From the NCBI RefSeq assembly GCF_026625745.1, contig NZ_CP113061.1:1-64000 (forward strand): a stretch of 64,000 nt of DNA, given 5' to 3'. The translations under genes and the position numbers were made by a program. Numbering within the stretch: position 1 is the first letter of the stretch; each line of letters starts with the position of its first letter. The notes beneath the pieces are model-generated. The model was not told the origin of the DNA, did not search any database, and saw only the letters and a program-made list of their open reading frames with translations. Shown here one piece after another: positions 178 through 20,871 of the stretch. Origin of the DNA: Asticcacaulis sp. SL142 (GTDB taxonomy: Bacteria > Pseudomonadota > Alphaproteobacteria > Caulobacterales > Caulobacteraceae).

Positions 178-1734
178 ATGCTTTCGAATAAGTGGCTTTT
201 TGCCAGTGCGATAGCGCTTGGCTGTGGCTTGGCTGTGTCTGTACAGGCGCAGGAGGCGGTTTCAGAGCCGGTGGGTGAAGCTGAGGCCTCTGCAGAAGAT
301 GATGATCGTCGTCTTGACGTTATGAACTACCGGATTGAAGGCAATACGGTTCTGACGCGGATGGATATTGAGGGTGCGGTTTTGCCGTATCTGGGCCCGC
401 AGCGGAAGGTATCTGATGTTGAGGCCGCGCGTCTGGCGCTGATGAAGGCCTATCACGCCAAGGGCTTTGAGACGGTTGATGTGCGCATCCCTGAGCAGGA
501 CGTGCGGGGCGGGATTATCCGGTTTGAGGTGGTTGAACTGAAGGTCGGGCGTCTGCGGGTTAATGACAGCCGTTACTTCTCGCCGGAAGATATCAAGGCG
601 CAACTGCCGTCATTGGCTGAGGGCGGCGTGCCGAACTACAAGAATGTGGCCAGCGAGATCGCCGGGGCCAACAAGTCGGCGGATCGTATGGTTACGCCGA
701 CACTGCGGGCGGGTGATACGCCCGGCACGGTCGATGTCGATATCAATGTCGAAGATAAGCTGCCGCTGCATGGCTCAATTGAGATCAACGACCGGGCGTC
801 AAGCCGCACCAAGCGGGCGCGCCTTTCGGCCGGCATCAGTTATGGCAACCTGTTCCAGATGGGCCATAGCCTGAACCTGCAGGCCCAGGTGACACCGGAG
901 AAGCCGGAAGAATCGTGGGTGGTATCGGCCTCCTATGTGGCGCCTATCCGCGACACCCCGTGGACGATTGTCGGCTACGGCGTTCACTCAGACAGCGACG
1001 TGGCCGCTCTGGGCGGGATCAATGTTCTGGGGTCGGGCGATATTTTTGGTCTGCGGGGTATCTACACCAAGATCACCGGCGAGGCCGAGACGGCGCGGGT
1101 GCATCAGATTACGATGGGTATCGACTACAAGAGCTTCAAGGAAGATCTGGTTCTTGGAGACAGCACAGGCAAAACGCCGATCGACTATATTCCGCTGACT
1201 GTACAGTACACGCAGTCGCAGCGGACTGAGGATTTTGATTTTGACTTCAGCGTCGGGGTCAATCTGGGTCTGCGCGGACTTGACGCTACTAACAATGAGT
1301 TTGCGCTTAAGCGTTATGGTGCCAAGGCCAACTGGGTCGTTTTGCGCTCTGACGTGGGCTACCGGCACAAGTTTGACAATGACTGGCGCGCGGGTGCCAA
1401 GGTGGCGATGCAGTTTGCGGGTCGTCCGGTGATCTCGAACGAGCAGTTCTCGGCGGGCGGTCTTGATAGTGTCCGTGCCTTTTATGAAAGCCAGGACTTA
1501 GGCGACGACGGCATCTCGGTGCAGTTTCAGGTCGATACACCATCCTTCCATAAAAAAGCGGGGACATGGCTGAACGAGGCGCGGGCGTTTGCGTTTGCCG
1601 ACGATGCGGCGCTGCGCATTTATAAGCCGCTGGCCGGTCAGGCTGAGACCACGGATCTGTCGAGCATTGGGGCGGGTATTACCGTGCGGGCGCTGGAGCG
1701 GCTTAACGCCTCGGTGCTTTTGGCGCACCCCTGA
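178..1734 (+). CDS. Two-partner secretion transporter TpsB (ShlB/FhaC type), 3' end out of frame
   Basis: Outer-membrane Omp85-superfamily pore expected to secrete the giant exoprotein encoded at 6860. A signal peptide ends near residue 24 (VQA-QE). A POTRA-type domain spans roughly residues 48-120 (motif YRIEGNTVL), and the beta-barrel occupies about 195 onward. The conserved hairpin tip of the family (VRGF/Y) is present as VRAF at 432-435. The frame stops at TGA 1732-1734, just before the final strand. The missing C-terminus is intact in the frame starting at 1731 (separate entry), so the gene has a one-base frameshift in a run of four C. Family identity is clear. Whether the break is real or a sequencing error is open. 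Confidence 0.88.
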   Translation: MLSNKWLFASAIALGCGLAVSVQAQEAVSEPVGEAEASAEDDDRRLDVMNYRIEGNTVLTRMDIEGAVLPYLGPQRKVSDVEAARLALMKAYHAKGFETVDVRIPEQDVRGGIIRFEVVELKVGRLRVNDSRYFSPEDIKAQLPSLAEGGVPNYKNVASEIAGANKSADRMVTPTLRAGDTPGTVDVDINVEDKLPLHGSIEINDRASSRTKRARLSAGISYGNLFQMGHSLNLQAQVTPEKPEESWVVSASYVAPIRDTPWTIVGYGVHSDSDVAALGGINVLGSGDIFGLRGIYTKITGEAETARVHQITMGIDYKSFKEDLVLGDSTGKTPIDYIPLTVQYTQSQRTEDFDFDFSVGVNLGLRGLDATNNEFALKRYGAKANWVVLRSDVGYRHKFDNDWRAGAKVAMQFAGRPVISNEQFSAGGLDSVRAFYESQDLGDDGISVQFQVDTPSFHKKAGTWLNEARAFAFADDAALRIYKPLAGQAETTDLSSIGAGITVRALERLNASVLLAHP

Positions 1735-1808
1735 CCAACCGTAAATCCGTAATCGAAGACATCGAAAACAACCTGCGTGTGCAGGCGCGCATCTGGAGCG
1801 AATTCTAA
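1731..1808 (+). other. Displaced C-terminal tail of TpsB
   Basis: Reading from CTG at 1731 gives 25 residues ending ...RVQARIWSEF and then TAA. It looks like the last strand of a TpsB barrel, with the terminal phenylalanine that outer-membrane proteins need for assembly. It joins the upstream frame if one C is added to the CCCC run at 1728-1731, or if the ribosome slips back one base there. Confidence 0.7.
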
Positions 1809-1840
1809 TTCTAATTTTCTGAGCAACGCGAATTCTAATT
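1798..1840. repeat. Short direct repeat GCGAATTCTAATT
   Basis: The 13-mer GCGAATTCTAATT occurs at 1798-1810 and 1828-1840. The first copy overlaps the end of the TpsB tail. Both lie in the gap before the ExbB-like gene. The function is unknown. It could be a leftover of a small local duplication. Confidence 0.5.
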
Positions 1841-1866
1841 TTTAGTGAGTGATGAGGACGGCTGAT

Positions 1867-3648
1867 ATGGCTTTCAAGAAGTTTTTAGTGGCGGCGGTGG
1901 CGGCGGCGGTATTGCCGACCTCGGCGATGGCGTGGTGGGATGAGGGCTATGCTGAGCGTCGTTCGGTCACGCTGAACGCCGGTGCGATCAAGGGGCTGAC
2001 CTCTGAGGTTAAGCGCGCGCCGGTACTGGTGCGGTTGCACAGCGGGGTGCTTGATTTTACGCAAACCAAGCCCGATGGCAGCGATTTGCGCTTTGTGGCG
2101 GGCGACGATAAGGCGCCGCTGAACTACCACATCGAACGCTTTGATCCTCTGGCAGAGCTGGCGCTGATCTGGGTGGACGTGCCCACAGTGGCGCCCGGTG
2201 CCAACCAGACGATCTGGCTTTACTACGGTAACGAAACGGCCAAGCCGGTGTCGGATGCGGGCAAGACCTATGACGGTGAATATAGCCTGGTTCTGAACCT
2301 GAACGAGAATGCGGCGGTGCCGGTTGATCAGACGGCCAATGCCAATCGCCTGAGTGCGGCCAATACCAAGCCAACGCTGGAAGGCCTGATTGCCGGGGGG
2401 TTGAGCCTTAACGCCCAAAGCCAGGTGCGAGTGGCCCCCAGTGCGTCGCTCAATGTGCCCGCGGGCGGCAAGATGACGGTCTCGGCCTGGGTTAAACCGG
2501 CGGCCGGTGTGGCCGTGGCCGGAGATACCGTGCTCTACACCAAGCTGAGCGCGGGTGGGGAAGGGGCACCATCGCGCCTGACCGTCGGGCTTCGCGACGG
2601 TGCGCCTTTCGTGCGTCTGGGCGCCAATGAGGCGGTCGCGGCAACCCCTTTGCCGGAAGGCACCTGGGCCCATGTGGCGGCCACGGCCGATGGCGAGACG
2701 GTGACACTTTACGTCAATGGCGCACCCGCCGGATCGTTTGCCGCGGCCTTACCTGAACTGGGCGGCGAAGAGGTTATTGGTACAGTCTCAGGTGTCACGG
2801 GCTTTAGCGGCGATATCGACGAAGTTAATCGTGCCAATGCCGCCCGCTCGGCGGCCTATATCGCCCTTCAGGCCCAGTCTCAGGGACGCTCGTCCGGGTT
2901 TGCCACTGTGGCGACCGAGGCTGAGGATGCCGGTGCGGCTAATCACGACTACATGCGCATCCTGATCAGCGCCCTGACCCCGGATGCCTGGGTGGTGATC
3001 ATTCTGCTGACGATCATGTCGGTGCTCTCCTGGATCATCATGGTCATGAAGGGGCAATTGTTTGGCCGCACCAACCGGGCCAACCGCAAGTTCCTTGAGA
3101 TCTATCAGACGGCGACGCGCGGCCAGGGGGCTCATACGGGCCTGACCAATAAGGATCTGTCGTCGCAGCACCCTAACGCCTCTGTGGCGCGTCTGTTCTC
3201 GATCGGTCAGGACGAACTGCGCCAGCGGATGGCAGAGGCCAAAGATCTGGGCTCAAAATATGCCATTGCCCCGCAATCGGTGGCGGCGATCCGCTCCGCC
3301 CTTGATGCCGGCCATGTGCGCGAAGAACAGCGCCTGGCCAAGTGGATGGTGCTGTTGACCATTGCGATCTCCGGCGGTCCGTTCCTGGGCCTTTTGGGGA
3401 CGGTCTTGGGGGTTATGATCACCTTTGCGGGTGTGGCGGCGGCCGGTGAAGTCAATATCACCGCCATCGCCCCGGGTATTGCGGCCGCTTTGCTTGCGAC
3501 CGTGGCCGGTCTTGCGGTCGCGATCCCGGCCCTGTTTGGCTACAACTATCTGACCAGTCAGCTTGATAATATCTCCGCCGACAATCAGGTGTTTGTCGAC
3601 GAACTGGAAAAGCGCATCGCCGAAACCTACCGCAACAGTGACCGGTAA
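1867..3648 (+). CDS. DUF2341/LamG-ExbB fusion (MotA/TolQ/ExbB proton channel)
   Basis: Inner-membrane proton channel subunit with a large N-terminal periplasmic extension. The start at 1867 is preferred to 1849 or 1852 because GAGG lies just upstream and it opens a clean signal peptide ending AMA-WW (residue 22). Residues about 23-120 match DUF2341 (WWDEGYAERR). About 130-325 look like a LamG/concanavalin-type lectin fold. A membrane segment lies near 370-390. The ExbB core follows, with two more membrane segments (GPFLGLLGTVLGVM and APGIAAALLATVAGL). With ExbD and the TonB-like protein it should form an energy-transducing complex. The lectin-like part suggests glycan contact in the periplasm, which is inference. 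Confidence 0.85.
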   Translation: MAFKKFLVAAVAAAVLPTSAMAWWDEGYAERRSVTLNAGAIKGLTSEVKRAPVLVRLHSGVLDFTQTKPDGSDLRFVAGDDKAPLNYHIERFDPLAELALIWVDVPTVAPGANQTIWLYYGNETAKPVSDAGKTYDGEYSLVLNLNENAAVPVDQTANANRLSAANTKPTLEGLIAGGLSLNAQSQVRVAPSASLNVPAGGKMTVSAWVKPAAGVAVAGDTVLYTKLSAGGEGAPSRLTVGLRDGAPFVRLGANEAVAATPLPEGTWAHVAATADGETVTLYVNGAPAGSFAAALPELGGEEVIGTVSGVTGFSGDIDEVNRANAARSAAYIALQAQSQGRSSGFATVATEAEDAGAANHDYMRILISALTPDAWVVIILLTIMSVLSWIIMVMKGQLFGRTNRANRKFLEIYQTATRGQGAHTGLTNKDLSSQHPNASVARLFSIGQDELRQRMAEAKDLGSKYAIAPQSVAAIRSALDAGHVREEQRLAKWMVLLTIAISGGPFLGLLGTVLGVMITFAGVAAAGEVNITAIAPGIAAALLATVAGLAVAIPALFGYNYLTSQLDNISADNQVFVDELEKRIAETYRNSDR

Positions 3649-3659
3649 GGGGCGCGTTT

Positions 3660-4066
3660 ATGAAACTTCAATCCAAGCGTAAACCCTACGACGACATCAA
3701 CATTACGCCGATGGTCGATCTGACCTTCGTGCTGCTGGTGATCTTCATCCTGATGACGACGGCCGCCATCCAGGGCGTCAAGGTCAACCTGCCCAAGGCG
3801 TCAAGCTCGTTTAGTCTGGCCCAGCCGACGACCAAGGCGATCACGGTCGATAGTGCCGGCCAGATCTATCTCGACACCTTTCCGGTGACGCTGGATGAGC
3901 TGGAATCCGAGTTGCGACCCTGAAGTCCACCACGCCGGAGTTTCCCGTGGTCATCAAGGGGGACCGTGTCTCTCAATATGGCCGCATCATGGAAGTTCTG
4001 GATGTGTGCGGTCGTGTCGGTATCACCCAGATCGGTCTGGTCAGCGAACGCGTACGGAGTTCGTAG
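3660..4066 (+). pseudogene. exbD: ExbD/TolR-family transporter subunit, frameshifted
   Basis: Partner of the ExbB-like channel. The N-terminus has a single membrane segment with the proton-carrying aspartate (PMVDLTFVLLVIF, about residue 20). The frame closes at TGA 3921-3923 after 87 residues. The rest of the ExbD domain continues in the frame from 3920 (LKSTTPEFPVVIKGD ... QIGLVSERVRSS) to TAG 4064-4066. The full product would have about 135 residues, normal for ExbD. One C missing from the CCC run at 3918-3920 would explain it. The conserved second half argues for a recent or artefactual break. It lies 11 bases after the ExbB-like gene. Confidence 0.8.
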
Positions 4067-4069
4067 GTC

Positions 4070-4756
4070 ATGATTGAACCTCCCAAGTTCAGGCTGCGGG
4101 ACAACGTGCCGGTGATCCTGCTGGGCGTGATTGTTCTGGCCGCCCTGGTTCTGGCCGTCATGTACTTATGGCCCAAGGGCGACGCGGTGCGCACGGAGCG
4201 GGTGATCCAGGAAATTGCCCTGGCCACCCCGCCACCGCCGCCGGAGCCGCCCAAGCCGGAAGAAAAGGTGATTGAGGAACCCGAAGAAGTTGCGCCGGTT
4301 GAGCAGCCTTCGCCGCAACCGCCGTCGCCCACGCCGTCTGAGCAGCCTTCAGACGCACCACCGTCACCCTCCACAGAAGCCGCCGGTCTCGACCGGCTGG
4401 CGGATGCGGGATCTGACAGCTTTCGCCTGAGCTCCGGCAAGGGCGGGGGCCTGTTTGGTCGCGGCGGCGGCGGGGGCGGCGGTGACTGGGATGCGGCGGT
4501 GGCCCTCCACATCACCCGCGCCCTGCAACGCGATCCGCGCACCCGAAGCGCCAAAGGCAGTGTCAGGGTGGCGGTCAATATCGATGCGAAAGGCCAGTTC
4601 ACCTCAGCGCGTTTGTTATCCAGTACAGGCGATCCGGAGCTTGATGCGCACATCCGCGCGGTCCTGTCCGAGATCGCTCCCATGAGCCGTGGGCGTCCGC
4701 CCGGCATTAGCGGTTCGACCAATCTCACTATCAATCTGAAACGATCCGCCGGTTAA
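4070..4756 (+). CDS. TonB-like energy transducer
   Basis: A 228-residue protein with a short cytoplasmic N-terminus, one membrane anchor (about residues 14-33), a long proline/glutamate linker (PPPPPEPPKPEEK, about 50-105), a glycine-rich stretch, and a C-terminal TonB-type domain (about 140-225: AKGSVRVAVNIDAKGQ, LDAHIRAVL). This is the standard TonB layout. It sits three bases after the ExbD frame, so the three genes form an ExbB-ExbD-TonB cassette. The cassette lies inside the secretion operon and not beside a TonB receptor, which suggests that it serves the exoprotein, TpsB or the porin. Confidence 0.85.
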   Translation: MIEPPKFRLRDNVPVILLGVIVLAALVLAVMYLWPKGDAVRTERVIQEIALATPPPPPEPPKPEEKVIEEPEEVAPVEQPSPQPPSPTPSEQPSDAPPSPSTEAAGLDRLADAGSDSFRLSSGKGGGLFGRGGGGGGGDWDAAVALHITRALQRDPRTRSAKGSVRVAVNIDAKGQFTSARLLSSTGDPELDAHIRAVLSEIAPMSRGRPPGISGSTNLTINLKRSAG

Positions 4757-4783
4757 GCCGCGCGACTTAAAGGAAACCTGACC

Positions 4784-6337
4784 ATGTCTCTTCGTACCTC
4801 CCTTTTTGCCGGCAGCGCCTTGCTCCTGTCGCTGGCGGTCACCACACCGGCCCTGGCTCAGTCCAGCGATGTCGGCATTGAAATCCTGCAGTTGCTGGTC
4901 GATGAGGGGGTTATTCCTCATGCCAAGGCTCAGGAGATCCTGACCAAGGCCCGCCAGGCTGATGCCGCCAAGCGCGAAACTGAGGCCGCCAAGACCGCCT
5001 CCACGACCATTGACGTCGCCTATGTGCCGGAAACCGTGCGCGCGCAGATCAAGGCTGAGGTCAAGCAGGAAGTGGTCGCTCAGGCCAAGTCCGAAGGTTG
5101 GGTGGCACCCAACACTCTGCCGGATTGGGTGGACCGCATCAAGATCAGCGGCGACTTCCGCGCCCGCTTCCAGAATGAAGACTTCCCGACCTCGGTCATC
5201 ACCAACGGGATCGTGGTCGAAGGCAACCCGCCGGTATTCCCGAATGCCGCCGCTATCAACCGCGCCGGTGGCGTTAATATCGCTGACGGCTTTCCTTTGT
5301 TGAACTCAACCATCGACCGTCGCCGTTCCAACTACCGCGCCCGTCTCAAGTTCGAGGCGGACATTAATGACAAGGTGTCGGTGGGCTTACGTCTGGCGTC
5401 GGGCAATGACAACAATCCGGTAACGACCAACACCAGCTTTGGCGACTACTTCTCCAAGGATGAAATCTGGATCGATCAGGCCTATGTCAATGTCAAGCCG
5501 ATCAAGGGCCTGACCCTGACGGCGGGCCGGATGCCCAATCCGTTCTACGCGACCGATCTGGTCTGGGATGCGGACATCAATCTTGAAGGTCTGGCTGTGT
5601 CTGGTGACTATGGCTTTAATGACAGCCTGAAGATCTTTGGCACGGCGGCGGTTCTGCCGTTGCAGGAGCGCGAAATCTACGACGACAGCTACCTCTATGC
5701 CGCGCAGGCCGGTGTCGGCGGCCAGTTTGCCAGCCAGTTCGGCTACAAGGCCGCCGTCAGCTATTACGACTTCAGCAATGTTCAGAGCACGGTCAATGCG
5801 CCGAACTCGCGCCTGACCGACTGGTCAGCGCCGAAGTACCTGTCCAAGGGCAACTCACTGGTCAATCTGCGCACCGATGGCACGACCTTCCTCGCGGGTC
5901 TGGCCTCCAAATATGAACTGATGGCGTTTACCGGTCAGCTTACTTACGGCACAGGGCCGCGTCAGTACCGCCTCTCCGGCGAAGTGGTCAAAAACCAGGG
6001 TCACGACACGGCGGAACTGCTGGCCCTGGGCCTGCAGGACTCCGGCGATACCGGTTATCAGATCCGCTTTGATGCCGGTTATCCGGTTGTCTCTGAGCGT
6101 AACCAGTGGCGGGTAGCGGCAGCCTTCAAGCATGTCGAAGCCGATGCGGTTCTGGACGTGTTTACCGACTCCGACTTCGGCCTCGGCGGCACCGACAGCG
6201 AAGGCTACATCCTTGAGGGGGAATACGGCGTCTATAAAAACTCAAGCGTGAGCGCGACCTGGCTGTCGTCGGACTCGATCGACGGCCTGCCGTTCTCGGT
6301 CGATGTCCTGCAACTCAACTTCAACACCCGCTTTTAA
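4784..6337 (+). CDS. Putative outer-membrane porin
   Basis: Signal peptide ending ALA-Q near residue 26. Residues about 30-100 are a charged, probably helical periplasmic region (EILQLLVDEGVIPHAKAQEI), and the rest alternates as expected for a beta-barrel (ISGDFRARFQNEDF, RRRSNYRARLKFEADIN), ending in NTRF with a terminal phenylalanine. This matches the putative-porin family that often accompanies DUF2341-ExbB and large TPS genes. It follows the TonB-like gene by 27 bases and has a good GGAAA-type ribosome site. The substrate is unknown. A glycan or oligosaccharide would fit the lectin-like ExbB fusion. Confidence 0.8.
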   Translation: MSLRTSLFAGSALLLSLAVTTPALAQSSDVGIEILQLLVDEGVIPHAKAQEILTKARQADAAKRETEAAKTASTTIDVAYVPETVRAQIKAEVKQEVVAQAKSEGWVAPNTLPDWVDRIKISGDFRARFQNEDFPTSVITNGIVVEGNPPVFPNAAAINRAGGVNIADGFPLLNSTIDRRRSNYRARLKFEADINDKVSVGLRLASGNDNNPVTTNTSFGDYFSKDEIWIDQAYVNVKPIKGLTLTAGRMPNPFYATDLVWDADINLEGLAVSGDYGFNDSLKIFGTAAVLPLQEREIYDDSYLYAAQAGVGGQFASQFGYKAAVSYYDFSNVQSTVNAPNSRLTDWSAPKYLSKGNSLVNLRTDGTTFLAGLASKYELMAFTGQLTYGTGPRQYRLSGEVVKNQGHDTAELLALGLQDSGDTGYQIRFDAGYPVVSERNQWRVAAAFKHVEADAVLDVFTDSDFGLGGTDSEGYILEGEYGVYKNSSVSATWLSSDSIDGLPFSVDVLQLNFNTRF

Positions 6338-6349
6338 GGAGGGATGATC

Positions 6350-6802
6350 ATGACCTTTCTCTCCAAACTTCTCATGGTATCGTCGGCCCTTGTGGTGATC
6401 TCAGGCGCGCCCGCCTACGCTCAGACATCGCCGGCCCCCAAAACCGTGGCCCAGCTTGAGGCCGATCTGCGCCAGCAGACCACGGTGGCCAGTAACGCCC
6501 GTCAGGAAGTCGAGCGCCTGCGGGCGGAACTGGCTCTCAAGGACGAACTGATCGCCCTTGGGGTTCAGCGTAATGCTGAACTCTATGCGATTGCCTCCGA
6601 GATCGCCGACAAGGGTCTGAGCAAGCACTCGTTAGAGCCCTTCGTGCAGGCCCAACGCGTCAAGATGGAAAACCTCAAGCAGTCCTATGAGGATCGTCTG
6701 CGGGCCGCGCGTGTCTACGACACCACCCTGCCACCCAGCGTTCAGGCCCGCATGGAACAGGATCTGGCCAAACCCAAAACTGATGGCGCGGGTTCTGAGT
6801 AA
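6350..6802 (+). CDS. Small exported coiled-coil protein
   Basis: About 150 residues with a signal peptide (ending AYA-Q), then a helical heptad-like region (AQLEADLRQQTTVASNARQEV, about 33-75) and a charged C-terminus. The ATG at 6350 is chosen over 6344 because the AAGGAGGG ribosome site would touch 6344 but is properly spaced from 6350. I do not recognise a named family. Its place between porin and exoprotein, 12 bases after the porin, suggests a periplasmic helper for the exoprotein. Confidence 0.7.
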   Translation: MTFLSKLLMVSSALVVISGAPAYAQTSPAPKTVAQLEADLRQQTTVASNARQEVERLRAELALKDELIALGVQRNAELYAIASEIADKGLSKHSLEPFVQAQRVKMENLKQSYEDRLRAARVYDTTLPPSVQARMEQDLAKPKTDGAGSE

Positions 6803-6859
6803 CCGCGCCGCTACCCCTGATATGTTCGCCATATAATTTTTGATTACAGGAAGTCTTCC

Positions 6860-12800: not shown

Positions 12801-15800
12801 CCGGGGCCTCCGGGGCGCGTGATCAGCGCACCCAGGGCTTTCATGTGATGTCAGGCCAGACCCTGCGCACACGATCATTCTATCGCGAGACCAGCGCCAA
12901 TACCTTCTTTGTGTCGGATGCGTTCCTCAAGAAAGCTCTGCGCACCAACCGTCCGGTTGGCGAAGTGCCGCGCATCCCGCTTGATGGTGGCTCGGTGGTC
13001 TTCAAAGTGGCCGAAACCCTCAACCTCGATGGTAAACTGATTTCGGGTGCGGCCAGTGGTGGTCGCGGTGGTTTCGCCGACATCGCCTCATCCAAAGTGG
13101 TCGTGGCGGGCACAAATACCGATCTGTCGCAATATGACGGCTACCTGGTGCTCAAAAGCGATCAGTTGTCGGCCTTCGGGGCGGACAGCCTTTTGATCGG
13201 CGGCACGCGCCAGCAGGGCGCCGTCAATATGGAGCTTTCGGTATCGGGGACAGACATCGTTGTCGATAATACCGGCTCGGTGCTGTTTGGCCCGGAACTG
13301 TTGTTTGCCTCTACCGGTAATATCGACGTCAAGGATGGCGCAAAGCTTGAAACGCGCGGCAAGATCAGTGGTGTGTCCGGCGATCTGCGGGTGCTGGCCA
13401 ATATCGCGGCCCTCATCGATAACAACGGCACACCCACGGACCTCAATGACGACATAACCATTCATGGTGTGCTGGATCAGGGCACCGTCCTGCGGTTATC
13501 ATCCGGCGATCAGGTTGATATACTGCGCGATACCGACGCGGTTAATGCCGCCAATGCGCTTCGTAATGATCCGGCAGCGCTTGCGATCGTTAACAGCCAA
13601 CGCGTTGCCAAGGGGCTGGCACCCCTCGACCTCAGGCAGGGCCTATTGACCATTGCCGATGGCGCGTCACTCAAGAGCAGTCGCTCGGTGGCCCTCGATG
13701 CGACGAACAATACCCGTCTGGGCAATCTGGTGACGCTTGAGACCCAGCAACTGAGTGCCTCGGCCTCACGGGTCAGCATTGGGGCGGTGCCGGCGGGTGT
13801 CGATGGGCTGATCTTTGCCGATGGCTCACTGGGCGCTCTGGCTAAGGCCGCTGATCTGACGCTCAAGTCGTATTCGACACTTGATCTTTACGGCGGTGTT
13901 ACGTTGGCGGCAACGGGCGCTTTACGTCTTGATACCGGTGAGGTGCGGGTGATTGACGCTAACAATCAGCCGACGACCCTTAAGGCGCAAACCCTGACCC
14001 TGACCCATACCGGCAGCGCTAAGTCAGTTGCGACGACGGGCTCTGCGTCACTGATACTTGATGCCACCAATGTCTACTTCGAAGGCAATGATAAGTGGCT
14101 GTCGGGTATTAATAATCTGAGCATCACGGCGCGCGAGCGGGTGATCGGTCGTGACGACGGTACGCTTTATATCCCCGGCGCACTGTCCGTTACGGCCGCG
14201 GGGCTGACGACCGAGAGTGGCGCGCGTCTGTTCTTTGATGCCACGGGGGCGATCAATGTCACGTCAACTGCCAATGCTACCCTTCCGGCGTTCCAGTCCT
14301 TCGGCGGCACACTGGGTCTGACCGGGGCTTCGGTCACCTATGCCGGTCAGTCACGCCTGACGGGCGGCACCATAAACCTTCAGGCCCGTACCGGCGATGT
14401 AGTGCTGGCCCAGGGCGCGATATTGGATGTCACCTCTAATGCCAGCCAGTTCTTCGATAAGACGGTGGGTGTGGGTGCAGGTTCGGTCAATCTTGTGGCT
14501 GATCTGGGCGATGTCAATCTGGGCACAGGCTCATTGATCGACGTTTCGGGCTCTGCCGCAGGCGGTGATGCCGGTACGCTGACAATCAAAACCGGCGTTG
14601 GCGAGGCGATCCTGAATGGTACGCTGAAAGGCACATCGGCTGCGGGTTCACGCGGCGGTTCGTTCAACCTGCTGACGCAGTCCCTGACCAATTTCGGCAC
14701 CTTTAATACGGTGCTTGATACGGGTGGCTTCCGCCAGTCGCGCCGCTTTGAGATCAACTCAGGCGATGTGACGGTTGATGGCACCGTCAATGTGCAGGAC
14801 TTTGCGGTCATCGCCAATGACGGCTCCGTCAATGTCACCGGCACAGTTAAGACGACCGGTGATAATGGTGGCCGCATTCAGGTATCCGCGGCGGAGAACG
14901 TGACCGTATCCGGCACCGGTAAATTGCTGGCCAGCGCCAATGCGACCGGCGGTGCAGGCGGCACGGTCATTGTTGAAACCACAGGACGTAACGGCGGGCA
15001 GATCAGCACTCAGACCGGTTCGGTCATCAATGTCAGCGGCACGGGTGAGGGCGGGCGTCTGGTCCGTTTCCGCGCCCCGCAAGTCGGCAACGATGTCGCC
15101 ATCGGTCAACTGGCCGGGACGATCACCGGGGCGCGTTCGGTTCTGGCCGAAGGCTTCAAGGTCTATGATGGAGTTTCTATCATCGATCAGGGTGTGATCA
15201 CTCAGGTGTCTAATGACGCCACGGCCTTTATGACGGCGAACGGCACGGCCATTCGCAATCGTCTGGGGGCAGGCGTTACGCTGGTGGCCGGTATTGAACT
15301 GCGCAGCGACAGCGATATGGAGCTTAAAGACGCCTGGGATCTGTCGGGTCTGCGCTTTGGCGGTGCGGCCGGGGTTCTGACCCTGCGGGCGGCGGGTGAT
15401 TTGCTGATCAATGCCAACCTGAGTGACGGGTTCAATGGCGACCGCTTACTGGACGGCGAAAGCTGGGCCTTTAACCTGACGGCGGGTGCCAATACCCAAA
15501 GCCCGGACACCCTGGCCGTGCTTAGCGCCGGTCAACTGGCGGCGGGTAAGGGCTCAGTGAAGATCGGCGGCACCGCTGATACGCTCGAATACTTCTATGA
15601 CCCGGCCTATGGCAATGAAAACCGGCTGTATGTGATCGGTGAAGATGGCCGGTTCGTAAATGATCCTTCCGGTGGTCGCGAACAATTCCTTGAACTTCAG
15701 CGCGACGCCGCGACGGGCAAATATATTCACCCCATCACGGGCGAACTGATCGAAAAAGATCCGGTCACCGGCGACTATGCTGACACAGGCATTTATGCCC

Positions 15801-18800
15801 GCCGTCCGCTGCCGTGGCTGTTCGGTATTTACCGGGCCGACGGTTCATCGGGCAATGGCGGTCTGGATGGCAATGGCAATCCACGCGGCGGCTTTGATCC
15901 ACGCGAATATCAGCAATGGGATAATTCGACGGGCTATGTGGTTCGCACCGGTACGGGTGCGATCAATGTCGCCTCGGCGCGTGATCTGGTGCTTCAGGAA
16001 CGGGCGTCGGTCATCTACACAGCGGGTAAAAACGCCGCACCTCTGGCAGGCTTTTATGTGCCAACGGGTTCCTTGCGTATTTCCACCAGCAATGACACGC
16101 CGATCCTGACGCTGCGAACCGTCCAGTACGGCGAAGGCGGCGGCGATGTTACCTTGCGGGTCAGTGGCGATATCCTCGCCAGTTCGCAGACTCCGCAATT
16201 GCCGTCCGGCTATCTGTTCCAGCGTCGAAGCCTAGATGAGACGACCGGATTGTTCGCGTCTGCCCCTGACCGTGCGTATGATCAGACGTCATGGTGGGTG
16301 GATTACAGTCTGTTCCAGGGCGGTATCGGCGCTTTGGGTGGCGGTAATATCGCCATCGACGCGGGCGGTGACATCGATAATCTCGGCGTCAGCATCCCCA
16401 ACAGCGGCCGCGTGACCGGCAACACCGGATCAGGTGATGCCATTGCCTTGACCTTGACCGGCGGCGGCAATCTCAGCCTGAGAGCCGGCGGTAATATCAA
16501 GGGCGGCGTTTTCTATGTCGCCGACGGCAAGGGTGACCTCACCGCGGGCGGCAGCTTTACGGCGGGCTCAAAGGCCAAGGTCTATTACGATCCGTCCTGC
16601 ACGTTCTCCAACAGCCCGACCTGTTACCTGCACTATGATCCGCGCGGCAAAAGCCCTGAATACGACGTTTATTCGATGTTCTTCACCTCATCGGGTCAGT
16701 TCGACATCAAGAGCGGTGGCGATCTGAATATCGACGGGGTCATGGACCCACTGCTGGCAGGCTCAGTGTCTGAATACCGTGGTTTTAACTTCCTCAGCTA
16801 CACCGACGAAGCCAGTGTGCGCCTGTTCTCAGCGGGCGGTGACGTCAATGTCTGGAACAACGGCCTCAACACCTCGATTGCTTTCTATAGTTCCGGCAGC
16901 AATGTGCCTAATCCGGGCGCGGACCCCCTGTGGTACTACGGTCGTATTGATGCGATTGATGACGGTCGGGATTCCATGGCCTGGGATCTGCGCCCCTCCA
17001 GTTTCAGCGCGATCGCGGCTACCGGCGATGTGCGGATTGTGGGCGGCATGATGCTGATGCCATCGGCCAAGGGTAATCTTGAGCTTTTGGCGGGTAATAA
17101 CGTCATCATTGGCTATGGCACTCAGTCGGAGCAGGGACGAAATGCTGAGCGTGGCCTTGATGGGGCGTACTTCACCAGCCAAAGAGACGTGGAGAAAAAC
17201 CAGCGCGGGGCGACCATTTATGAAGGCATCTTCATGAGCCAGGCCGATATGACCTATCTGCCAACGCCGACCAATTCGGTATCGTTCGTCAGAAATATAG
17301 ACCGGGTACATCTGCGCAGCGCCGGGGTTGGCAATACCTACTTAGGCGTACGGCCGTTCTCGGTTGATGCCCTGCCGGATCTGCATGCCGGTGATCATGA
17401 GCCTGTGCGGATATATGCTGCCAAGGGCGATATCGTTACTGCCGGACGCACCGTTATGAACCTGCCCAAGCAGGCCTGGTTCCAGGCGGGTGGAAATATC
17501 TACTTCCCGTCTTATGACATCCAGCACAATAACCCGAATGACCTTAGTCTGGTGCGAGCCGGTAAGGGGATCTACTTTGATATCTCCGGCCAGTTTGGAA
17601 ACTCAAATGACAGGATTGTGGACTCATACGGGCATCTGACCGTTTCCGGCCCCGGCCGTCTTGAGGTCGAAGCCGGCACGGACATCTATCTGCCGAGCAA
17701 CAGCTACGGGATCAGCAGCCGACGTATTACCTTAGAGCCGGGTGCGCAGTTCTGGAAGCCGGAAGAGAAGGCGGCCGACATCGCTATCTCGACCGGGTTC
17801 AACCAGACGCCGTCCTATGCCGCGTTTGAGGACGCCTACCTCAATCCGGAAAAAGCCGGTGAGATGGCGGATTACCTCAAGGATGACAGCGGCAAGTCGC
17901 TCTACCTGTTTGACCGCGACTATGACCGCGCCAAGGGGGCCACCGGTGAGTTTGCCGTTCCGGAACCGCGTGAGGGTCTGGTCAACTATGTCCGTCGTTT
18001 ACAAGGGCTTGCGCCGCTGAAAACACGGGCTGAAGAGGTCGCGTACCTCGACACCGCCTGGACCTACTGGAAGGCTCTGCCGACCGACTACAAGACGCCG
18101 TACTTCCGCAGCGTCCTGTTCCTGGAACTGCGCACCACTGGGCGCGAAGCCAATGACGCGGACAATGAACGCTATAACACTACCTTCCGCGGTTATAAGG
18201 CGATTGAGACCCTGTTCCCCGGTGCTCAAAAAGAGACCATTGAAACTCTGGTTGAAGGTGAATCGCTCTGGAAAGGTGACTTTGAAACCTATGCCAGCCG
18301 GGTCATCTCCAGCGGCGGCGGCAAGATAGAGTTCGTCATTCCTGGCGGTGCTATGACTCTGGCTAATGTCTCGGCCCAGCCAAGTGAGACTGGTCAGCCG
18401 ACCCTTGACCCGGCGACGGGCAAGCCAGTGCAGGTCTATAATCCGAACACCGGAATATATGAAGACGACCGGGGCAACGCCCAACGGGCCGGGATTCTGA
18501 CGACCGATGGCGGTGAGATCAATGTTCTGTCTCATTCCAGTGTGACCCTAAATCAGTCGCGCCTGCTTACGGCAAAGGGTGGCAATGTCATGATCTGGTC
18601 GTCATGGGGCGATATCGCGGCGGGTAAGGGCGCACAGACCTCGCTCAGCCCGGCCTTCTTTGACTATGGCCTGGACCTTCTGGCGCGGATGAAGCGTGAG
18701 CCCGCAGGTCTGCCGACCGGGGCCGGTATCGGCACCTTGTCCACTCAGGACGGCACACCGCCCGCCGACGTCGATTTGATCGCACCGGCCGGGGTGGTGG

Positions 18801-19423
18801 ATGCCGGTGATGCCGGTATCCGTGTCGCGGGCAACTTCAACGTCTTCGCGATTGAAGTTCTGGGTGCCGATAACATCGATGTCGGTGGGGTAACATCAGG
18901 TCTGCCGGTGCCGCCGGCCGCACCGCCGACCTCGCTTGATATCGGTTTGTCGTCGACAAACGATCTTGTGGCCAAGTCTCTGAAGGATGCGATCTCAAAC
19001 GTTCAGAAGGACAAATCGATCGTGCCGCCATCGCTGATCGAAGTGAAGGTGACCGGCTATGACGAAGACGCCTGCGGTACTGACGAAAACCCATGTCCCG
19101 ATGAAAACAACGTTCAGCCACAAGCGTCGGTTTCCAGTGAGGCGCCTGCCTTTACACCGGTCAAGGTCGCCGTGCGTTATGTCGAACCACGCATCGACTT
19201 CAAACTGCCAGCCCTGATGCTGGACGATGCCATCCGCAGCGTGGGCCAGTTTTCCGGAATGACGATCATCTACGACTCGGCAGTTTTACGAAACCGTATG
19301 GCGCCTGCCTTAACGGGCAAGATGACCGCTGGTGAAGCGCTGGAGCGTCTGCTCAAAAATGAAGGGCTCACCGCCATTCGTGTCGGGCCGCGCTCCATCC
19401 GTCTGGAGCGGGTTCAGGGTTGA
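6860..19423 (+). CDS. Giant TPS exoprotein (filamentous haemagglutinin family) with C-terminal STN domain
   Basis: A 4187-residue secreted protein. After a long signal peptide (about 43 residues) comes a TPS domain with FxxxxxxxWIAVNRV and LNDNGV, equivalent to the family's NPNGI. The unit is duplicated: residues about 96-168 (KALLDWEDFRLQ...) and about 190-262 (KAILDWSDMSLQ...). Most of the rest is irregular beta-helix-type repeats (GG.I.L.A....GS.IDVSG). Cysteines are nearly absent except C3247/C3255 and C4072/C4079. Residues about 4112-4187 form an STN (secretin/TonB short N-terminal) domain (FKLPALMLDDAIRSV, GKMTAGEALERLL). The STN at this end is unusual. The expected role is surface adhesion or glycan capture, exported by TpsB. 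The substrate is not deducible. Confidence 0.92.
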   Translation: MSRIAASARTGLTGSRRLKASASLMVLALAASVSSASVSPALAAEPFANMVGIQAGRIIGTGPNAQVAQWTGANAPVIGTDVDGRALMTIQQTQAKALLDWEDFRLQTNEVLEFQQQSADWIAVNRVHGNQAAEINGEIRAIGKVFVLNDNGVLIGKDAKINTRTLVTGQGVSDVLIDGKTTTLVQSREKAILDWSDMSLQAGEVLKFQQQKSDWVALNRSYNADKTVLAGDVKADGHIYLVAPRGLVVDGKINAQQVVLSSLFMRNDQFLGDPDQASATGGLISYTRRQEQGSNMNPTFSNTDLAGFDLNPNGEGYNPLGWKDTIISFNGTQYGAGPYYNVTKPGPEIVDANDPLKYNVTIGKTGSVTTGKFGKVMLFGPKVTNLGQINIQDEGQVIMAAGENVWLQPAGSGMLAAGNGRLDAYVGAFYPLGVSLGNIPYYRGPQRANTEEWRAFYSLLLGRNIALNQNLSTADFNKLYAAGYVFVNGQYVYQPSLIETYVRNNQAQRAQTYTARNEGIITSKRGGSVVMRGLNLEQMGAIDMTSTALFRSDISLFASVWDWRGGPGTESDGRADAVPGHGTVVFGEGSLTQITPDLDSTDKIPVSSGAQSVGQVKINARSVHMQEDSIIHMPSGNMNVLLDAGAHIFDNNLGAGANQGNEDGTRFLMERGATIDLSGWETTLEMGYHQVTGKLYAAQLADSPLQRDGALYRQEISVDRRYGTNLANWQGLDNLSQGTLGQFLTNGGTLNMDIGDDFIMKSGSVIDVSGGVTTYKDGYVYTTLLRRLDGSIIDIREADPDELYMGLANQWTVYDTKWGKQTTYNIPLMTATQGKFETSYQHGGTGGKVDIMAPDSVLQGTLKGETVTGRYQRQAGTIPTGGAFILNNAGESEGEYVSNNILITARETALNANFGFKDKLSDTYGELFGVEFDAATDPISSDKIRSDNTTLVSADFFNRSTMGSYALNQVGVSGDHVAVQVEEGVNLNLKNGASFSLAADQRIEFLGSIRTEGGDVSLSGMSLTLGGSTKIDTRGSWYSDYEIDQYIALDTLPRIHGGDITLSANGDLLNNADNVGLVLPDTVVLDLSGGAWVERSGKLNGGKGGNLTINALLAEKDELDLSGLPSARAYGLGGNGAFSLTFGDAIIIGAALPVADEEATGRPPLLFTPDFFENSGFSAINLIGKSVEVLDGVQVHATSASLQLKEPAPLSGKPPAFWAPSGTDIYDVAEARYLAPELRSPSLRSGMAINLSAQGVTAGAELGDVRIGEGSLLATEVGGKISLRGNTTVAGTILAPAGAISLSSNATTGNFVHVTPTGSLLVPGVAMITSRNVVAGRELINGEIYDGGKITLTANEIKLDQGSKLDVSGTAATFDLQDSNRRGLYTPVTLASNGGAIEINGQRLAINDTTYKANAGGAGARGGSLTLNWTVQLGGGGNTGGTTPTSVLEQLEQYVEWGYVTDKDFNPITSLYGIDLSTIGWEYFVGPLDFPPGYVLNSRAEAVALFDAYGAAAAGPAPMLIIGETFSGGGGGAPDMPSALLELFTMVGYQPPTPSTEAPIITTLSPDKIAAGGFSALTINASPGVVFNGDVNLGGKKADGSYIFDTLNINASQIVGNTGSTVRLEAGVVGLGQNENILPMASYGSLLGIDPAGQGTTITVSAGTLLQVGNASFHGFEDTRLNSGGDIRFAGLRLATNQAPAGSLYSAGKLTLKADQVYAGTGRIFSVTSDTAIEILAQDDGGPINDSPYEAAAKLTLKAPTIIQGGTLRSPLGTLTLEAYDNGTQGSGDLIFKAGSLTSVSGDGKSIPYGYTANGDSWTDPFTGLELTNLPTKALNLTADKVDLQAGSEIDVSGGGDLFAREFVPGVNGTLDWLTGYRDVDYNWVSDPGSIYAVIPDFEGNIAPLGFGSSQIGIGDKVYLSGGSGLKAGYYTLLPAEYALMPGAYRVTAQHRYSNSFVDASLGTSRQLTDGSSVQVGYVVAGASGARDQRTQGFHVMSGQTLRTRSFYRETSANTFFVSDAFLKKALRTNRPVGEVPRIPLDGGSVVFKVAETLNLDGKLISGAASGGRGGFADIASSKVVVAGTNTDLSQYDGYLVLKSDQLSAFGADSLLIGGTRQQGAVNMELSVSGTDIVVDNTGSVLFGPELLFASTGNIDVKDGAKLETRGKISGVSGDLRVLANIAALIDNNGTPTDLNDDITIHGVLDQGTVLRLSSGDQVDILRDTDAVNAANALRNDPAALAIVNSQRVAKGLAPLDLRQGLLTIADGASLKSSRSVALDATNNTRLGNLVTLETQQLSASASRVSIGAVPAGVDGLIFADGSLGALAKAADLTLKSYSTLDLYGGVTLAATGALRLDTGEVRVIDANNQPTTLKAQTLTLTHTGSAKSVATTGSASLILDATNVYFEGNDKWLSGINNLSITARERVIGRDDGTLYIPGALSVTAAGLTTESGARLFFDATGAINVTSTANATLPAFQSFGGTLGLTGASVTYAGQSRLTGGTINLQARTGDVVLAQGAILDVTSNASQFFDKTVGVGAGSVNLVADLGDVNLGTGSLIDVSGSAAGGDAGTLTIKTGVGEAILNGTLKGTSAAGSRGGSFNLLTQSLTNFGTFNTVLDTGGFRQSRRFEINSGDVTVDGTVNVQDFAVIANDGSVNVTGTVKTTGDNGGRIQVSAAENVTVSGTGKLLASANATGGAGGTVIVETTGRNGGQISTQTGSVINVSGTGEGGRLVRFRAPQVGNDVAIGQLAGTITGARSVLAEGFKVYDGVSIIDQGVITQVSNDATAFMTANGTAIRNRLGAGVTLVAGIELRSDSDMELKDAWDLSGLRFGGAAGVLTLRAAGDLLINANLSDGFNGDRLLDGESWAFNLTAGANTQSPDTLAVLSAGQLAAGKGSVKIGGTADTLEYFYDPAYGNENRLYVIGEDGRFVNDPSGGREQFLELQRDAATGKYIHPITGELIEKDPVTGDYADTGIYARRPLPWLFGIYRADGSSGNGGLDGNGNPRGGFDPREYQQWDNSTGYVVRTGTGAINVASARDLVLQERASVIYTAGKNAAPLAGFYVPTGSLRISTSNDTPILTLRTVQYGEGGGDVTLRVSGDILASSQTPQLPSGYLFQRRSLDETTGLFASAPDRAYDQTSWWVDYSLFQGGIGALGGGNIAIDAGGDIDNLGVSIPNSGRVTGNTGSGDAIALTLTGGGNLSLRAGGNIKGGVFYVADGKGDLTAGGSFTAGSKAKVYYDPSCTFSNSPTCYLHYDPRGKSPEYDVYSMFFTSSGQFDIKSGGDLNIDGVMDPLLAGSVSEYRGFNFLSYTDEASVRLFSAGGDVNVWNNGLNTSIAFYSSGSNVPNPGADPLWYYGRIDAIDDGRDSMAWDLRPSSFSAIAATGDVRIVGGMMLMPSAKGNLELLAGNNVIIGYGTQSEQGRNAERGLDGAYFTSQRDVEKNQRGATIYEGIFMSQADMTYLPTPTNSVSFVRNIDRVHLRSAGVGNTYLGVRPFSVDALPDLHAGDHEPVRIYAAKGDIVTAGRTVMNLPKQAWFQAGGNIYFPSYDIQHNNPNDLSLVRAGKGIYFDISGQFGNSNDRIVDSYGHLTVSGPGRLEVEAGTDIYLPSNSYGISSRRITLEPGAQFWKPEEKAADIAISTGFNQTPSYAAFEDAYLNPEKAGEMADYLKDDSGKSLYLFDRDYDRAKGATGEFAVPEPREGLVNYVRRLQGLAPLKTRAEEVAYLDTAWTYWKALPTDYKTPYFRSVLFLELRTTGREANDADNERYNTTFRGYKAIETLFPGAQKETIETLVEGESLWKGDFETYASRVISSGGGKIEFVIPGGAMTLANVSAQPSETGQPTLDPATGKPVQVYNPNTGIYEDDRGNAQRAGILTTDGGEINVLSHSSVTLNQSRLLTAKGGNVMIWSSWGDIAAGKGAQTSLSPAFFDYGLDLLARMKREPAGLPTGAGIGTLSTQDGTPPADVDLIAPAGVVDAGDAGIRVAGNFNVFAIEVLGADNIDVGGVTSGLPVPPAAPPTSLDIGLSSTNDLVAKSLKDAISNVQKDKSIVPPSLIEVKVTGYDEDACGTDENPCPDENNVQPQASVSSEAPAFTPVKVAVRYVEPRIDFKLPALMLDDAIRSVGQFSGMTIIYDSAVLRNRMAPALTGKMTAGEALERLLKNEGLTAIRVGPRSIRLERVQG

Positions 19424-19436
19424 AAAGAAAAATAAG

Positions 19437-19463
19437 CCGGTGGCCGCAGTCTTGCGGCCCCGG
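19437..19463 (+). terminator. Intercistronic hairpin after the exoprotein gene
   Basis: GGCCGCA and TGCGGCC (19442-19448 and 19453-19459) pair around a 4-base loop, and flanking CCGG arms extend the stem with a bulge. There is no T-run right after it, and SapC follows at 19494, so it is more likely a partial terminator or a 3' stabiliser that sets lower expression of the downstream genes. Confidence 0.45.
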
Positions 19464-19493
19464 TGATATCTCAAGTTTATGTAGGAATTTTTT

Positions 19494-20258
19494 ATGTCTG
19501 ATACTGTCACCAATCCGTCGGGTCTGCCTCTGTTTTACCAAAAGCCGCAACCGCTGGCGTCCGGCATACACGGGGCGTTGCGCATCAAGGACGGCGACTA
19601 TGGCTTTGCCGCCGATACCGCCTGTATTCCTTTGATGCTCAGCGAATTTGCCTTTGCCGCGCGCGATTATCCGGTTCTGTTTGCGGTGCAGACCCTGGCA
19701 CCGGTCGCCCTGATGGGACTGAAAAACCAAAACCTGTTCGTAAGCGACGGGGCCTGGGACGAAGACGCCTATATTCCGGCCTATGCCCGCAGGTATCCGT
19801 TCAGCACCCTTCGCCTTGAAGAGGACAAGGGCTTTGCCATGGTCATCGACATCGCCAGCCCACGGGTTAGCGATAATGCCGACGAAGGCATAGCCCTGTT
19901 TGAAGGTGATGAACCGTCGGCTTACACCAAACAGGTTCTGGCTTTTTGTGAGCAATTTCACGCCGATGCCCTGATGACCGAGGCCTTTAGTGCGGCCCTG
20001 AAAGCGCAGGATCTCCTGATTGAGCGCCGCGCCGATGTTGTGCTGCCCAATGGCGAAAAGCTGGGCGTCAATGGCTTTCTGGTTATTGATCCTGAACGCT
20101 TCTCAGCCTTGGACGAAAAGCTTGTCATGGAATGGCATCGTAAAGGCTGGCTGGGTCTGATTCACTTCCATCTGGCCTCGCTGGAGCGCTTTCAGAATCT
20201 TCTGAAGCGTCAGTCACGACGCCCGAATTCACCTGATACACAAGACAAAGCCGCTTAA
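19494..20258 (+). CDS. SapC-family protein
   Basis: A 254-residue protein without a signal peptide that matches the SapC family throughout (PLFYQKPQPL near the start; FAARDYPVLFA; LGVNGFLVIDPERF; LIHFHLASLERF near the end). SapC was named from S-layer and surface-protein loci and is often beside TonB receptors in Caulobacterales. Its biochemical activity is not established. It lies 70 bases after the exoprotein gene, preceded by TAGGAA. The location suggests a cytoplasmic role linked to the exoprotein or the captured nutrient. Confidence 0.85.
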   Translation: MSDTVTNPSGLPLFYQKPQPLASGIHGALRIKDGDYGFAADTACIPLMLSEFAFAARDYPVLFAVQTLAPVALMGLKNQNLFVSDGAWDEDAYIPAYARRYPFSTLRLEEDKGFAMVIDIASPRVSDNADEGIALFEGDEPSAYTKQVLAFCEQFHADALMTEAFSAALKAQDLLIERRADVVLPNGEKLGVNGFLVIDPERFSALDEKLVMEWHRKGWLGLIHFHLASLERFQNLLKRQSRRPNSPDTQDKAA

Positions 20259-20274
20259 TTTTTAGGAAAACACA

Positions 20275-20871
20275 ATGACCTTTCGTATCCATAGCCTGAT
20301 CGCGGTGTCGTTTCTGGCAGCTCTGGCTGGCTTGCCTGCTCACGCCCAAACGCCCGCCGCGCCACAGACAGGGCTTGGCGGCCCCGTTATTGCCGGGGTT
20401 TGCCTGATGTCGCGTGAAGCGGTGCTGGTCAATTCCAAGGCCGGGGTTGCGGCCACAGCCCGCTTGCAGCAATTGACCACCGAAGCGCAGACTGAAATCG
20501 TGAACTTACGGAAGCCGGTTGAGCTTGAGGCCGAAGCCCTGCGCAAAGAGCAGGCAAAGCTTTCGGCCGAGCAACTGGCCACCCGGCAAAAGGCTTTGGG
20601 TCAAAAACTTCAGACCGTTCAAATCCAGGCGGAGCATCGCGGGCGTGAGATAGAGGCCACCCGTCAGAAAGTCCTTGATAAGATCAGTACCGAAGCCCAA
20701 CCGGTTATCGCTTCGGTTTATAAGGCCAAGGGCTGTGGGCTTCTGGTGGATCGCAATAGCGTGCTGGGTGGCAACCTCACCAATGACATCACCGCCAGCG
20801 TCGTGGCGGCCCTGGATACCAAGTTGAGCACCGTGACCTTCAACCGCGAAGTTCTGCCGGTATCGCAGTAA
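20275..20871 (+). CDS. OmpH/Skp-family periplasmic chaperone
   Basis: A 198-residue protein with a signal peptide (ending AHA-Q), the OmpH signature region near the N-terminus (GVCLMSREAVLVNSKAGVAA) and a long helical arm (about residues 65-130) typical of the jellyfish-shaped Skp trimer. Skp holds unfolded outer-membrane proteins in the periplasm. A dedicated copy directly after the exoprotein and SapC genes suggests that it chaperones the 4187-residue TpsA or the TpsB/porin barrels. It is 16 bases after SapC with a TAGGAAAA ribosome site, and it is the last gene of the operon. Confidence 0.85.
   Translation: MTFRIHSLIAVSFLAALAGLPAHAQTPAAPQTGLGGPVIAGVCLMSREAVLVNSKAGVAATARLQQLTTEAQTEIVNLRKPVELEAEALRKEQAKLSAEQLATRQKALGQKLQTVQIQAEHRGREIEATRQKVLDKISTEAQPVIASVYKAKGCGLLVDRNSVLGGNLTNDITASVVAALDTKLSTVTFNREVLPVSQ

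What the first reader, a model, noticed from the sequence alone, without database searches (positions are those of the whole stretch)
178..20871. A Ton-powered two-partner secretion locus
One operon joins TpsB, an ExbB channel fused to glycan-binding-like domains, ExbD, TonB, a porin, a coiled-coil protein, a 4187-residue TpsA, SapC and Skp. Classical TPS needs no energy module. A dedicated ExbB-ExbD-TonB set together with an exoprotein that ends in an STN domain suggests that surface display, retrieval or nutrient uptake by the exoprotein is coupled to the proton-motive force. I know of no characterised system with this composition.
Basis: partly seen in the sequence, partly recalled or inferred. 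Interest (0 to 1): 0.9.

Follow-up and report, generated by a model that had tools for sequence, protein, structure and literature searches.

The report
Secreted giant adhesin wired to sigma factor
An Asticcacaulis bacterium carries a giant secreted surface protein whose tail bears a signalling domain best known from iron-siderophore receptors, beside its own energy module and a sigma-factor switch, so the cell may sense what its own exported protein is doing.

Summary
The locus is real: TpsB, a DUF2341-LamG-ExbB fusion, ExbD, TonB, Porin_5, a small protein, a 4187-residue TpsA ending in DUF3739 and STN, SapC, OmpH-like, in Asticcacaulis. (1) ECF sigma and FecR genes lie upstream, across the contig ends. 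(2) A second such locus shares a 99.95% identical 7.5-kb block but has another exoprotein; the window's tpsB and exbD are frameshifted, copy 2's are intact. (3) The composition resembles P. aeruginosa pdtAB-exbB2D2-tonB4-porin with VreAIR. New is the STN on the exoprotein. In 44 loci, ECF+FecR accompany every STN carrier (TpsA-fused 13, separate VreA-like 21) and are absent from the 10 loci with neither. FecR of STN-TpsA loci and of VreA loci are different lineages (p-AU 0.0007). Best reading: this TpsA is also a cell-surface-signalling transducer. The Ton set occurs without signalling too, so it serves this secretion type; what it energises is unproven.

The parts
178..1734 (+). tpsB (POTRA_2 + ShlB barrel); frame cut short near the 3' end in this copy, intact in the second locus
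1849..3648 (+). DUF2341 - Laminin_G_3 - ExbB fusion, 599 aa; signal-peptide-like start (by eye); Ala where TolQ has the conserved Glu
3661..4066 (+). exbD, interrupted by a frameshift in this copy; Asp of the NITPMVD motif kept
4070..4756 (+). TonB-like, 228 aa (TonB_2; weak match to HasB)
4784..6337 (+). Porin_5 outer-membrane porin, 517 aa
6344..6802 (+). small protein (coiled-coil-like by eye), no Pfam family; relatives in the same place in other loci
6860..19423 (+). tpsA, 4187 aa exoprotein: TPS domain, long body, DUF3739, tail motif, STN
18578..18910 (+). DUF3739 of TpsA
19037..19063 (+). TonB-box-like tail motif IEVKVTGYD (residues 4060-4068)
19259..19408 (+). C-terminal STN (transducer-type signalling domain)
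19494..20258 (+). SapC family protein
20275..20871 (+). OmpH/Skp-like protein
1..7521 (.). block 99.95% identical to the second locus (G000:C1 about 988.8-996.3 kb, minus strand); contig base 1 is exactly where the block begins

Best explanation
A Ton-associated two-partner secretion system whose exoprotein doubles as a cell-surface-signalling transducer. TpsB exports the TPS-domain-led protein. The C-terminal part (DUF3739, tail motif, STN) stays or pauses in the periplasm (inferred). There the STN touches the periplasmic part of the FecR-type anti-sigma encoded just upstream and so reports the state of the exoprotein (export finished, anchored, bound or under load) to the adjacent ECF sigma, which most likely controls the tps operon (inferred). 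ExbB-ExbD-TonB is a shared part of this TPS type even where no signalling genes were seen. It most likely acts on the outer-membrane end of the system; in the STN clade a TonB-box-like tail motif makes TpsA itself a candidate target (inferred, weak). Shown here: anatomy, conservation, co-occurrence, separate FecR lineage. Not shown: secretion, topology, STN-FecR contact, regulon, energy use.
For: STN type: 12 of 12 PDB hits up to E 1 are TonB-dependent transducers; Pfam STN above its cut-off; only the STN is confidently modelled in the C-terminus. Of 44 DUF3739-TpsA loci with fetched neighbourhoods, ECF+FecR lie in the fetched stretch of 13 of 13 with STN on TpsA (directly before the unit, for the window locus only across the contig ends) and of 21 of 21 with a separate VreA-like protein, and of 0 of 10 with neither; no locus showed both carriers. 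On the ExbB tree the STN-TpsA loci are one clade (SH-aLRT 98). The FecR proteins of VreA loci (100/99) and of STN loci (86/70) are separate, and holding them together is rejected, p-AU 0.0007: the anti-sigma partner differs with the STN carrier. In the own genome each locus has its own ECF (61% identical to each other) and FecR (44%) while the export block is 99.95% identical. Tail motif E-V-x-V-T-G in 12 of 15 STN tails, 0 of 61 others; its only place in the 4187 residues.
Against: The association rests on few independent events: 3 of 3 independent pairs on starred branches agree, which cannot reach significance. The FecR split was tested after a first tree had shown it, and the STN-locus FecR group has only 86/70. 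In P. aeruginosa, deleting vreA did not change pdtA/phdA promoter activity (PMC4971064 passages), and tpsA, tpsB, tonB-homologue and PA0696 mutants were as virulent as wild type in zebrafish (PMC2729926 passages), so an STN carrier beside the sigma pair need not be its switch. No STN-FecR contact was modelled. The TonB-box reading is weak: the matrix puts the tail first or second in the window TpsA, copy 2 and L074-L076, but its best window lay in the tail in only 9 of 54 C-terminal pieces, two of them not at the motif, and three same-genus orthologues read KATGSD. This ExbB subfamily lacks the conserved Glu (0 of 37 readable rows). Ton and TPS also go together without signalling genes.
Confidence: 0.6

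Rival explanations
1. Plain Ton-energised two-partner secretion: ExbB-ExbD-TonB drives a step of TpsA export, anchoring or release, or gates the Porin_5; the STN is a docking or anchor domain and the sigma pair only happens to sit beside it.
For: The Ton set is in the fetched stretch of 9 of the 10 loci that show no STN carrier and no ECF/FecR. Of 398 genomes 13 hold both DUF2341 and DUF3739, 1 DUF3739 alone, none DUF2341 alone. In G1030 the ExbB-ExbD-TonB stretch is 99.47% identical between two loci over 2834 bp while TpsB is 54% and FecR 40% identical.
Against: It leaves the STN/FecR/ECF pattern (34 of 34 against 0 of 10) and the different FecR lineage unexplained. Type V secretion is held to use no energy source (PMC5422565 passages).
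Confidence: 0.25
2. Nutrient or phosphate capture: the exoprotein binds a polymer or ligand at the surface, the Porin_5 takes the product in, and the Ton set powers uptake; the STN reports the substrate as in FecA.
For: A Porin_5 gene sits in the unit in most loci; the P. aeruginosa counterpart is expressed under phosphate limitation (passages of PMC7035377 and PMC4971064).
Against: No TonB-dependent receptor among the unit's genes; no Pho-box-like site at up to 3 mismatches upstream of either own locus; no catalytic domain found in TpsA by Pfam at E 0.01.
Confidence: 0.1
3. The window copy is decaying: frameshifts in tpsB and exbD mean that only the second locus works, or the frameshifts are sequencing errors in a repeat.
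For: Only two differences before window position 7501, both single-base indels in the window copy. Contig base 1 coincides with the start of the repeat, as expected if the repeat was handled as one piece in assembly (inference).
Against: TpsA, SapC and OmpH of the window copy are open and match their families. This rival concerns the copy, not what the system is.
Confidence: 0.05

Closest known systems
P. aeruginosa PdtA/PdtB with ExbB2-ExbD2-TonB4, PA0696 porin, under PUMA3 (VreA-VreI-VreR)
   Same: TpsB, ExbB, ExbD, TonB and putative porin in one transcription unit, a large TpsA nearby, and an ECF sigma with anti-sigma (passages)
   Different: There the STN-like domain sits on a separate periplasmic protein, VreA, with a TonB-like end; here it is the C-terminus of TpsA, no VreA is seen, and the FecR belongs to another lineage than that of VreA-type loci. 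P. aeruginosa sequences themselves were not compared.
FecA/FecR/FecI-type cell-surface signalling (also FpvA, PupB, HasR)
   Same: STN signalling domain, FecR-type anti-sigma, ECF sigma, Ton genes
   Different: The carrier is a TPS exoprotein, not a plugged beta-barrel receptor; TonB-box-like motif and STN are at the C-terminus in mirrored order. PMC7186176 (abstract and passages) says all STN domains found in SMART were N-terminal to other domains, PupR being a new C-terminal case.
Classical two-partner secretion (FhaB/FhaC, HMW)
   Same: TPS domain and TpsB with POTRA_2 and ShlB
HxuCBA of Haemophilus influenzae
   Same: A TPS pair in an operon with Ton-dependent uptake (PMC5422565 passage)
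   Different: A three-gene operon whose third gene is a TonB-dependent transporter; no energy, STN or sigma genes in it as described

Membership tests
Two-partner secretion (type Vb) | TpsA with N-terminal TPS domain and nearby TpsB with POTRA and ShlB barrel | tested here: met
Two-partner secretion (type Vb) | TpsB-dependent secretion of TpsA | not testable with these tools
   needs experiment
Pdt/PUMA3-type TPS cluster | tpsB with exbB, exbD, tonB and porin in one unit | tested here: met
   composition of the reference from paper passages
Pdt/PUMA3-type TPS cluster | separate VreA (STN + TonB-like end) | tested here: not met
   none in the fetched stretches of 13 of 13 STN-TpsA loci
Pdt/PUMA3-type TPS cluster | anti-sigma of the lineage found in VreA loci | tested here: not met
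   p-AU 0.0007 against one clade; P. aeruginosa VreR itself not in the tree
Pdt/PUMA3-type TPS cluster | PhoB control | tested here: inconclusive
   no Pho-box-like site (recalled consensus) at up to 3 mismatches upstream of either own locus; one 3-mismatch site in G435
Cell-surface signalling system | STN of transducer type, FecR-type regulator and ECF sigma together | tested here: met
Cell-surface signalling system | transducer is a TonB-dependent beta-barrel receptor with plug | tested here: not met
   Pfam finds TPS, DUF3739 and STN only in TpsA
Cell-surface signalling system | TonB box | tested here: inconclusive
Ton energy complex | ExbD membrane Asp and ExbB pore Thr residues kept | tested here: met
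   38 of 40 ExbD frames have the motif with Asp, 2 did not fit the pattern; GTV motif in 38 of 40 and the AT-ending motif in 37 of 40 ExbB rows, the rest unreadable by the pattern
Ton energy complex | conserved ExbB Glu (E. coli 176) | tested here: not met
   Ala at that place in 37 of 37 readable rows of 40; alignment to TolQ; importance of Glu-176 from PMC8599685 passage

The most novel reading that the evidence does not exclude
The exoprotein is a Ton-pulled, self-reporting surface fibre. Its C-terminal TonB-box-like strand is gripped by its dedicated TonB in the periplasm, so proton-motive force is applied along the filament, and the STN beyond it reports engagement or load to FecR and the ECF sigma: an adhesin that feels attachment and switches genes. 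VreA (STN + TonB-like end) would be the two-piece version that docks on the TpsA tail.
Probability: 0.2. Interest if true: 0.95.

Novelty: new variant of a known kind. Interest (0 to 1): 0.75.

Why it matters
It joins two textbook-separate systems, passive two-partner secretion and Ton-powered cell-surface signalling, in one polypeptide, and suggests a testable role for the P. aeruginosa exbB2-exbD2-tonB4 set, called still uncharacterised in 2020 (PMC7035377 passage). If right, exoprotein status is a transcriptional signal, and type V secretion is not always energy-free.

Tried and rejected
Programmed frameshifting in exbD: considered, rejected because copy 2 and two other genomes of the genus have an open exbD.

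STN derived from VreA: the STN tree makes TpsA-STN one clade (98/97) and VreA-STN a weak one (60/79), with no support for one inside the other; 86 columns only. Not shown.

TonB-box matrix as proof: made from 29 of the 60 plug matches in the own genome (30 loci fetched, one segment too short); not specific over all loci. The E-V-x-V-T-G expression and the loose tail expression (53 of 54 tails against 316 of 4000 control windows) were written after seeing the tails. One search dropped tails that lack its anchor expression or are under 70 residues. The Fisher values ignore relatedness and are not used.

Independent-pairs test: I gave the same 0/1 vector for 'STN carrier' and 'ECF+FecR', because the two agree in every row.

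AlphaFold of the C-terminus with 8 rows: the DUF3739 part is under pLDDT 50, only the STN usable. Structure comparison not available. The second structure job was not used.

Pho box: none near the own loci. Sphingobium SYK-6 Ton paper: no hit for hemagglutinin, two-partner or DUF2341.

Literature (open-licence library only): no paper holds 'DUF3739'. In the listings of the other searches I saw nothing on an STN-bearing TpsA: 20 of 27 papers shown, 20 of 44, 6 of 6, 20 of 23, 2 of 2, 3 of 3. Papers were seen as passages, none whole. P. aeruginosa sequences were not compared.

Rows set aside: G429 (4.3-kb contig) and G786 (the fetched upstream stretch showed no TPS operon genes). Not every DUF3739 hit had its neighbourhood fetched. 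G200, G379 and G268 are missing from the ExbB tree, and the window row was identical to copy 2 and entered once. In one search four FecR rows of two STN loci were labelled 'other' by mistake; one search mends this.
Full report
What is there. The window begins with a + strand unit, 178-20871, whose parts match their families: TpsB; a DUF2341-LamG-ExbB fusion; ExbD; a weak TonB; Porin_5; a small protein without family; a 4187-residue TpsA with TPS, DUF3739 and STN; SapC; OmpH-like. A GH3-like enzyme gene follows at 21109 (named by eye). The genus is Asticcacaulis: the closest named matches over the TpsA C-terminus are Asticcacaulis sp. UBA2476 (95%) and A. endophyticus (94%), and the contig of the latter has the length of that of G420, which is told as same genus.

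Defects. exbD is split over two frames and tpsB is shortened near its end. The second locus in the same genome has both intact; both frames are full length in G420 and G435. The two loci are 99.95% identical over window 1-7521, with only two single-base indels before position 7501, both in the window copy. Contig base 1 is exactly where that identity begins, so the assembler may have treated the block as one piece; the identity may be overstated and the frameshifts may be errors (inference). Beyond the TPS domain the exoproteins fall to 44-65% identity by segment; SapC is 61%, OmpH 52%, ECF 61%, FecR 44%.

Missed genes. At the far contig end, same strand, lie an ECF sigma (Sigma70_r4_2 5.7e-10) and a FecR protein (4e-21). 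If the contig is circular they are the first genes of the unit. G420 and G435 show ECF, FecR, then tpsB on one contig with like spacing. The second own locus has its own ECF and FecR in the same place.

Conservation. DUF3739 marks this TpsA type: 14 of 398 Pseudomonadota genomes, 24 of 390 genomes of the own family. DUF2341 is found in 13 of 398, all 13 among those 14. In the genus the ExbB fusion is in 4 of 25 genomes, the four with DUF3739. Of 46 loci with fetched surroundings two were set aside; in the other 44 the ExbB fusion, ExbD and TonB were in the fetched stretch in 41 (G200 cut by the stretch, G379 and G268 not seen there). So gene content is conserved far beyond the strain. Order varies: in some sphingomonad genomes TpsB follows TonB (L191, L195, L199, L201).

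STN pattern. 13 loci carry STN on TpsA: own genome 2, G420 and G435, S. gei, two further Sphingomonas records (L075, L076), and six loci in five genomes of the scan around S. gei. All 13 have ECF+FecR before the unit (12 seen on one contig, the window locus across the contig ends) and none shows a VreA-like protein. 21 loci have a VreA-like protein (STN plus TonB-like end); all 21 have ECF+FecR in the fetched stretch, none STN on TpsA. 10 loci show neither carrier and no ECF/FecR. Pfam on three VreA-like proteins gives STN in all three, in one below its cut-off, and TonB_2 in all three below its cut-off. The ExbB tree (quick method) puts the STN-TpsA loci in one clade (98) beside twelve VreA loci; the three states need 5 changes, and the independent pairs, 3 of 3, are too few for a test. 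FecR proteins of the two kinds are separate lineages, p-AU 0.0007 against one clade, tested after a first tree had shown the split; the STN-locus FecR group itself has 86/70 support.

What the STN is. Sequence search of the PDB gives 12 hits up to E 1, all TonB-dependent transducers, best FpvA 0.0008 and PupB signalling domain 0.0017. AlphaFold models it at block pLDDT 64-87; the rest of the C-terminus is not modelled.

Tail motif. 53 of 54 distinct DUF3739 tails fit a loose expression for a short alternating hydrophobic strand in a variable linker (control 316 of 4000 windows). In the STN clade it reads P-S-[LI]-I-E-V-x-V-T-G-[YF] in 12 of 15 distinct tails; E-[VI]-x-V-[TV]-G is in 0 of 61 others. 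The latter expression occurs in 10 of 29 own-genome receptor pre-plug segments and once in the window TpsA, at this place; in 16 ORFs over 2000 residues (several cut before the tail) there are 5 hits in 52,301 residues, all at the tail. A matrix from receptors ranks it second in the window TpsA, first in copy 2, L074 and L075, second in L076, but not across the whole set. The nearest STN-less tails differ little (PSIIEVKVLGYG). The motif is specific to the STN clade; TonB-box identity is a guess.

The energy module. ExbD keeps its Asp in 38 of 40 frames; ExbB has Ala where TolQ has Glu in 37 of 37 readable rows. In G1030, two STN-TpsA loci share an ExbB-ExbD-TonB stretch at 99.47% over 2834 bp while their TpsB is 54% and FecR 40% identical: a second case in which shared machinery is alike while other parts differ.

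Known relatives. P. aeruginosa: pdtA, pdtB, exbB2, exbD2, tonB4, a putative porin, and VreA-VreI-VreR, phosphate-controlled; associations in other genera were noted in 2009 (passages of PMC2729926 and PMC7035377). VreA is described as lacking the barrel and seemingly periplasmic, and its deletion left pdtA and phdA promoters unchanged (PMC4971064 passages). Type V export is said to use no energy source (PMC5422565 passages). PMC7186176 (abstract and passages) states that all STN domains it found in SMART were N-terminal to other domains, PupR being a new arrangement. A C-terminal STN on a TPS exoprotein was not seen in the listings named under Tried and rejected.

Judgement. The new and testable point is a two-partner exoprotein that carries the transducer domain of a sigma-factor switch, with an anti-sigma of its own lineage beside it.

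Noticed in passing
window 1-7521 and G000:C1 about 988.8-996.3 kb (L002, L003): Two TPS loci share a 99.95% identical export block but differ in sigma pair and exoprotein; the contig begins exactly at the block edge.
   Followed up: partly
L189 14603-17436 against L191 (G1030): Two STN-TpsA loci in one genome share an ExbB-ExbD-TonB stretch at 99.47% DNA identity while TpsB is 54% and FecR 40% identical.
   Followed up: partly
window 3001-3645 and the other rows of the ExbB set: The DUF2341-LamG-ExbB subfamily has Ala in place of the conserved Glu in 37 of 37 readable rows of 40.
   Followed up: partly
L003 5116-6294: A transposase-like frame (by eye) lies about 2 kb upstream of the sigma pair of the second locus.
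   Followed up: no
L119 and L203 (G778, S. gei): One genome holds both kinds: a locus with STN on TpsA and another with a separate VreA-like protein.
   Followed up: partly
window 21109-64000: Downstream ORFs look like a GH3 enzyme, exopolysaccharide functions, catalase, an N-acetylglucosamine cluster and a TonB-dependent receptor (60467-63205) with an EVVVTGFR box; named by eye only.
   Followed up: no
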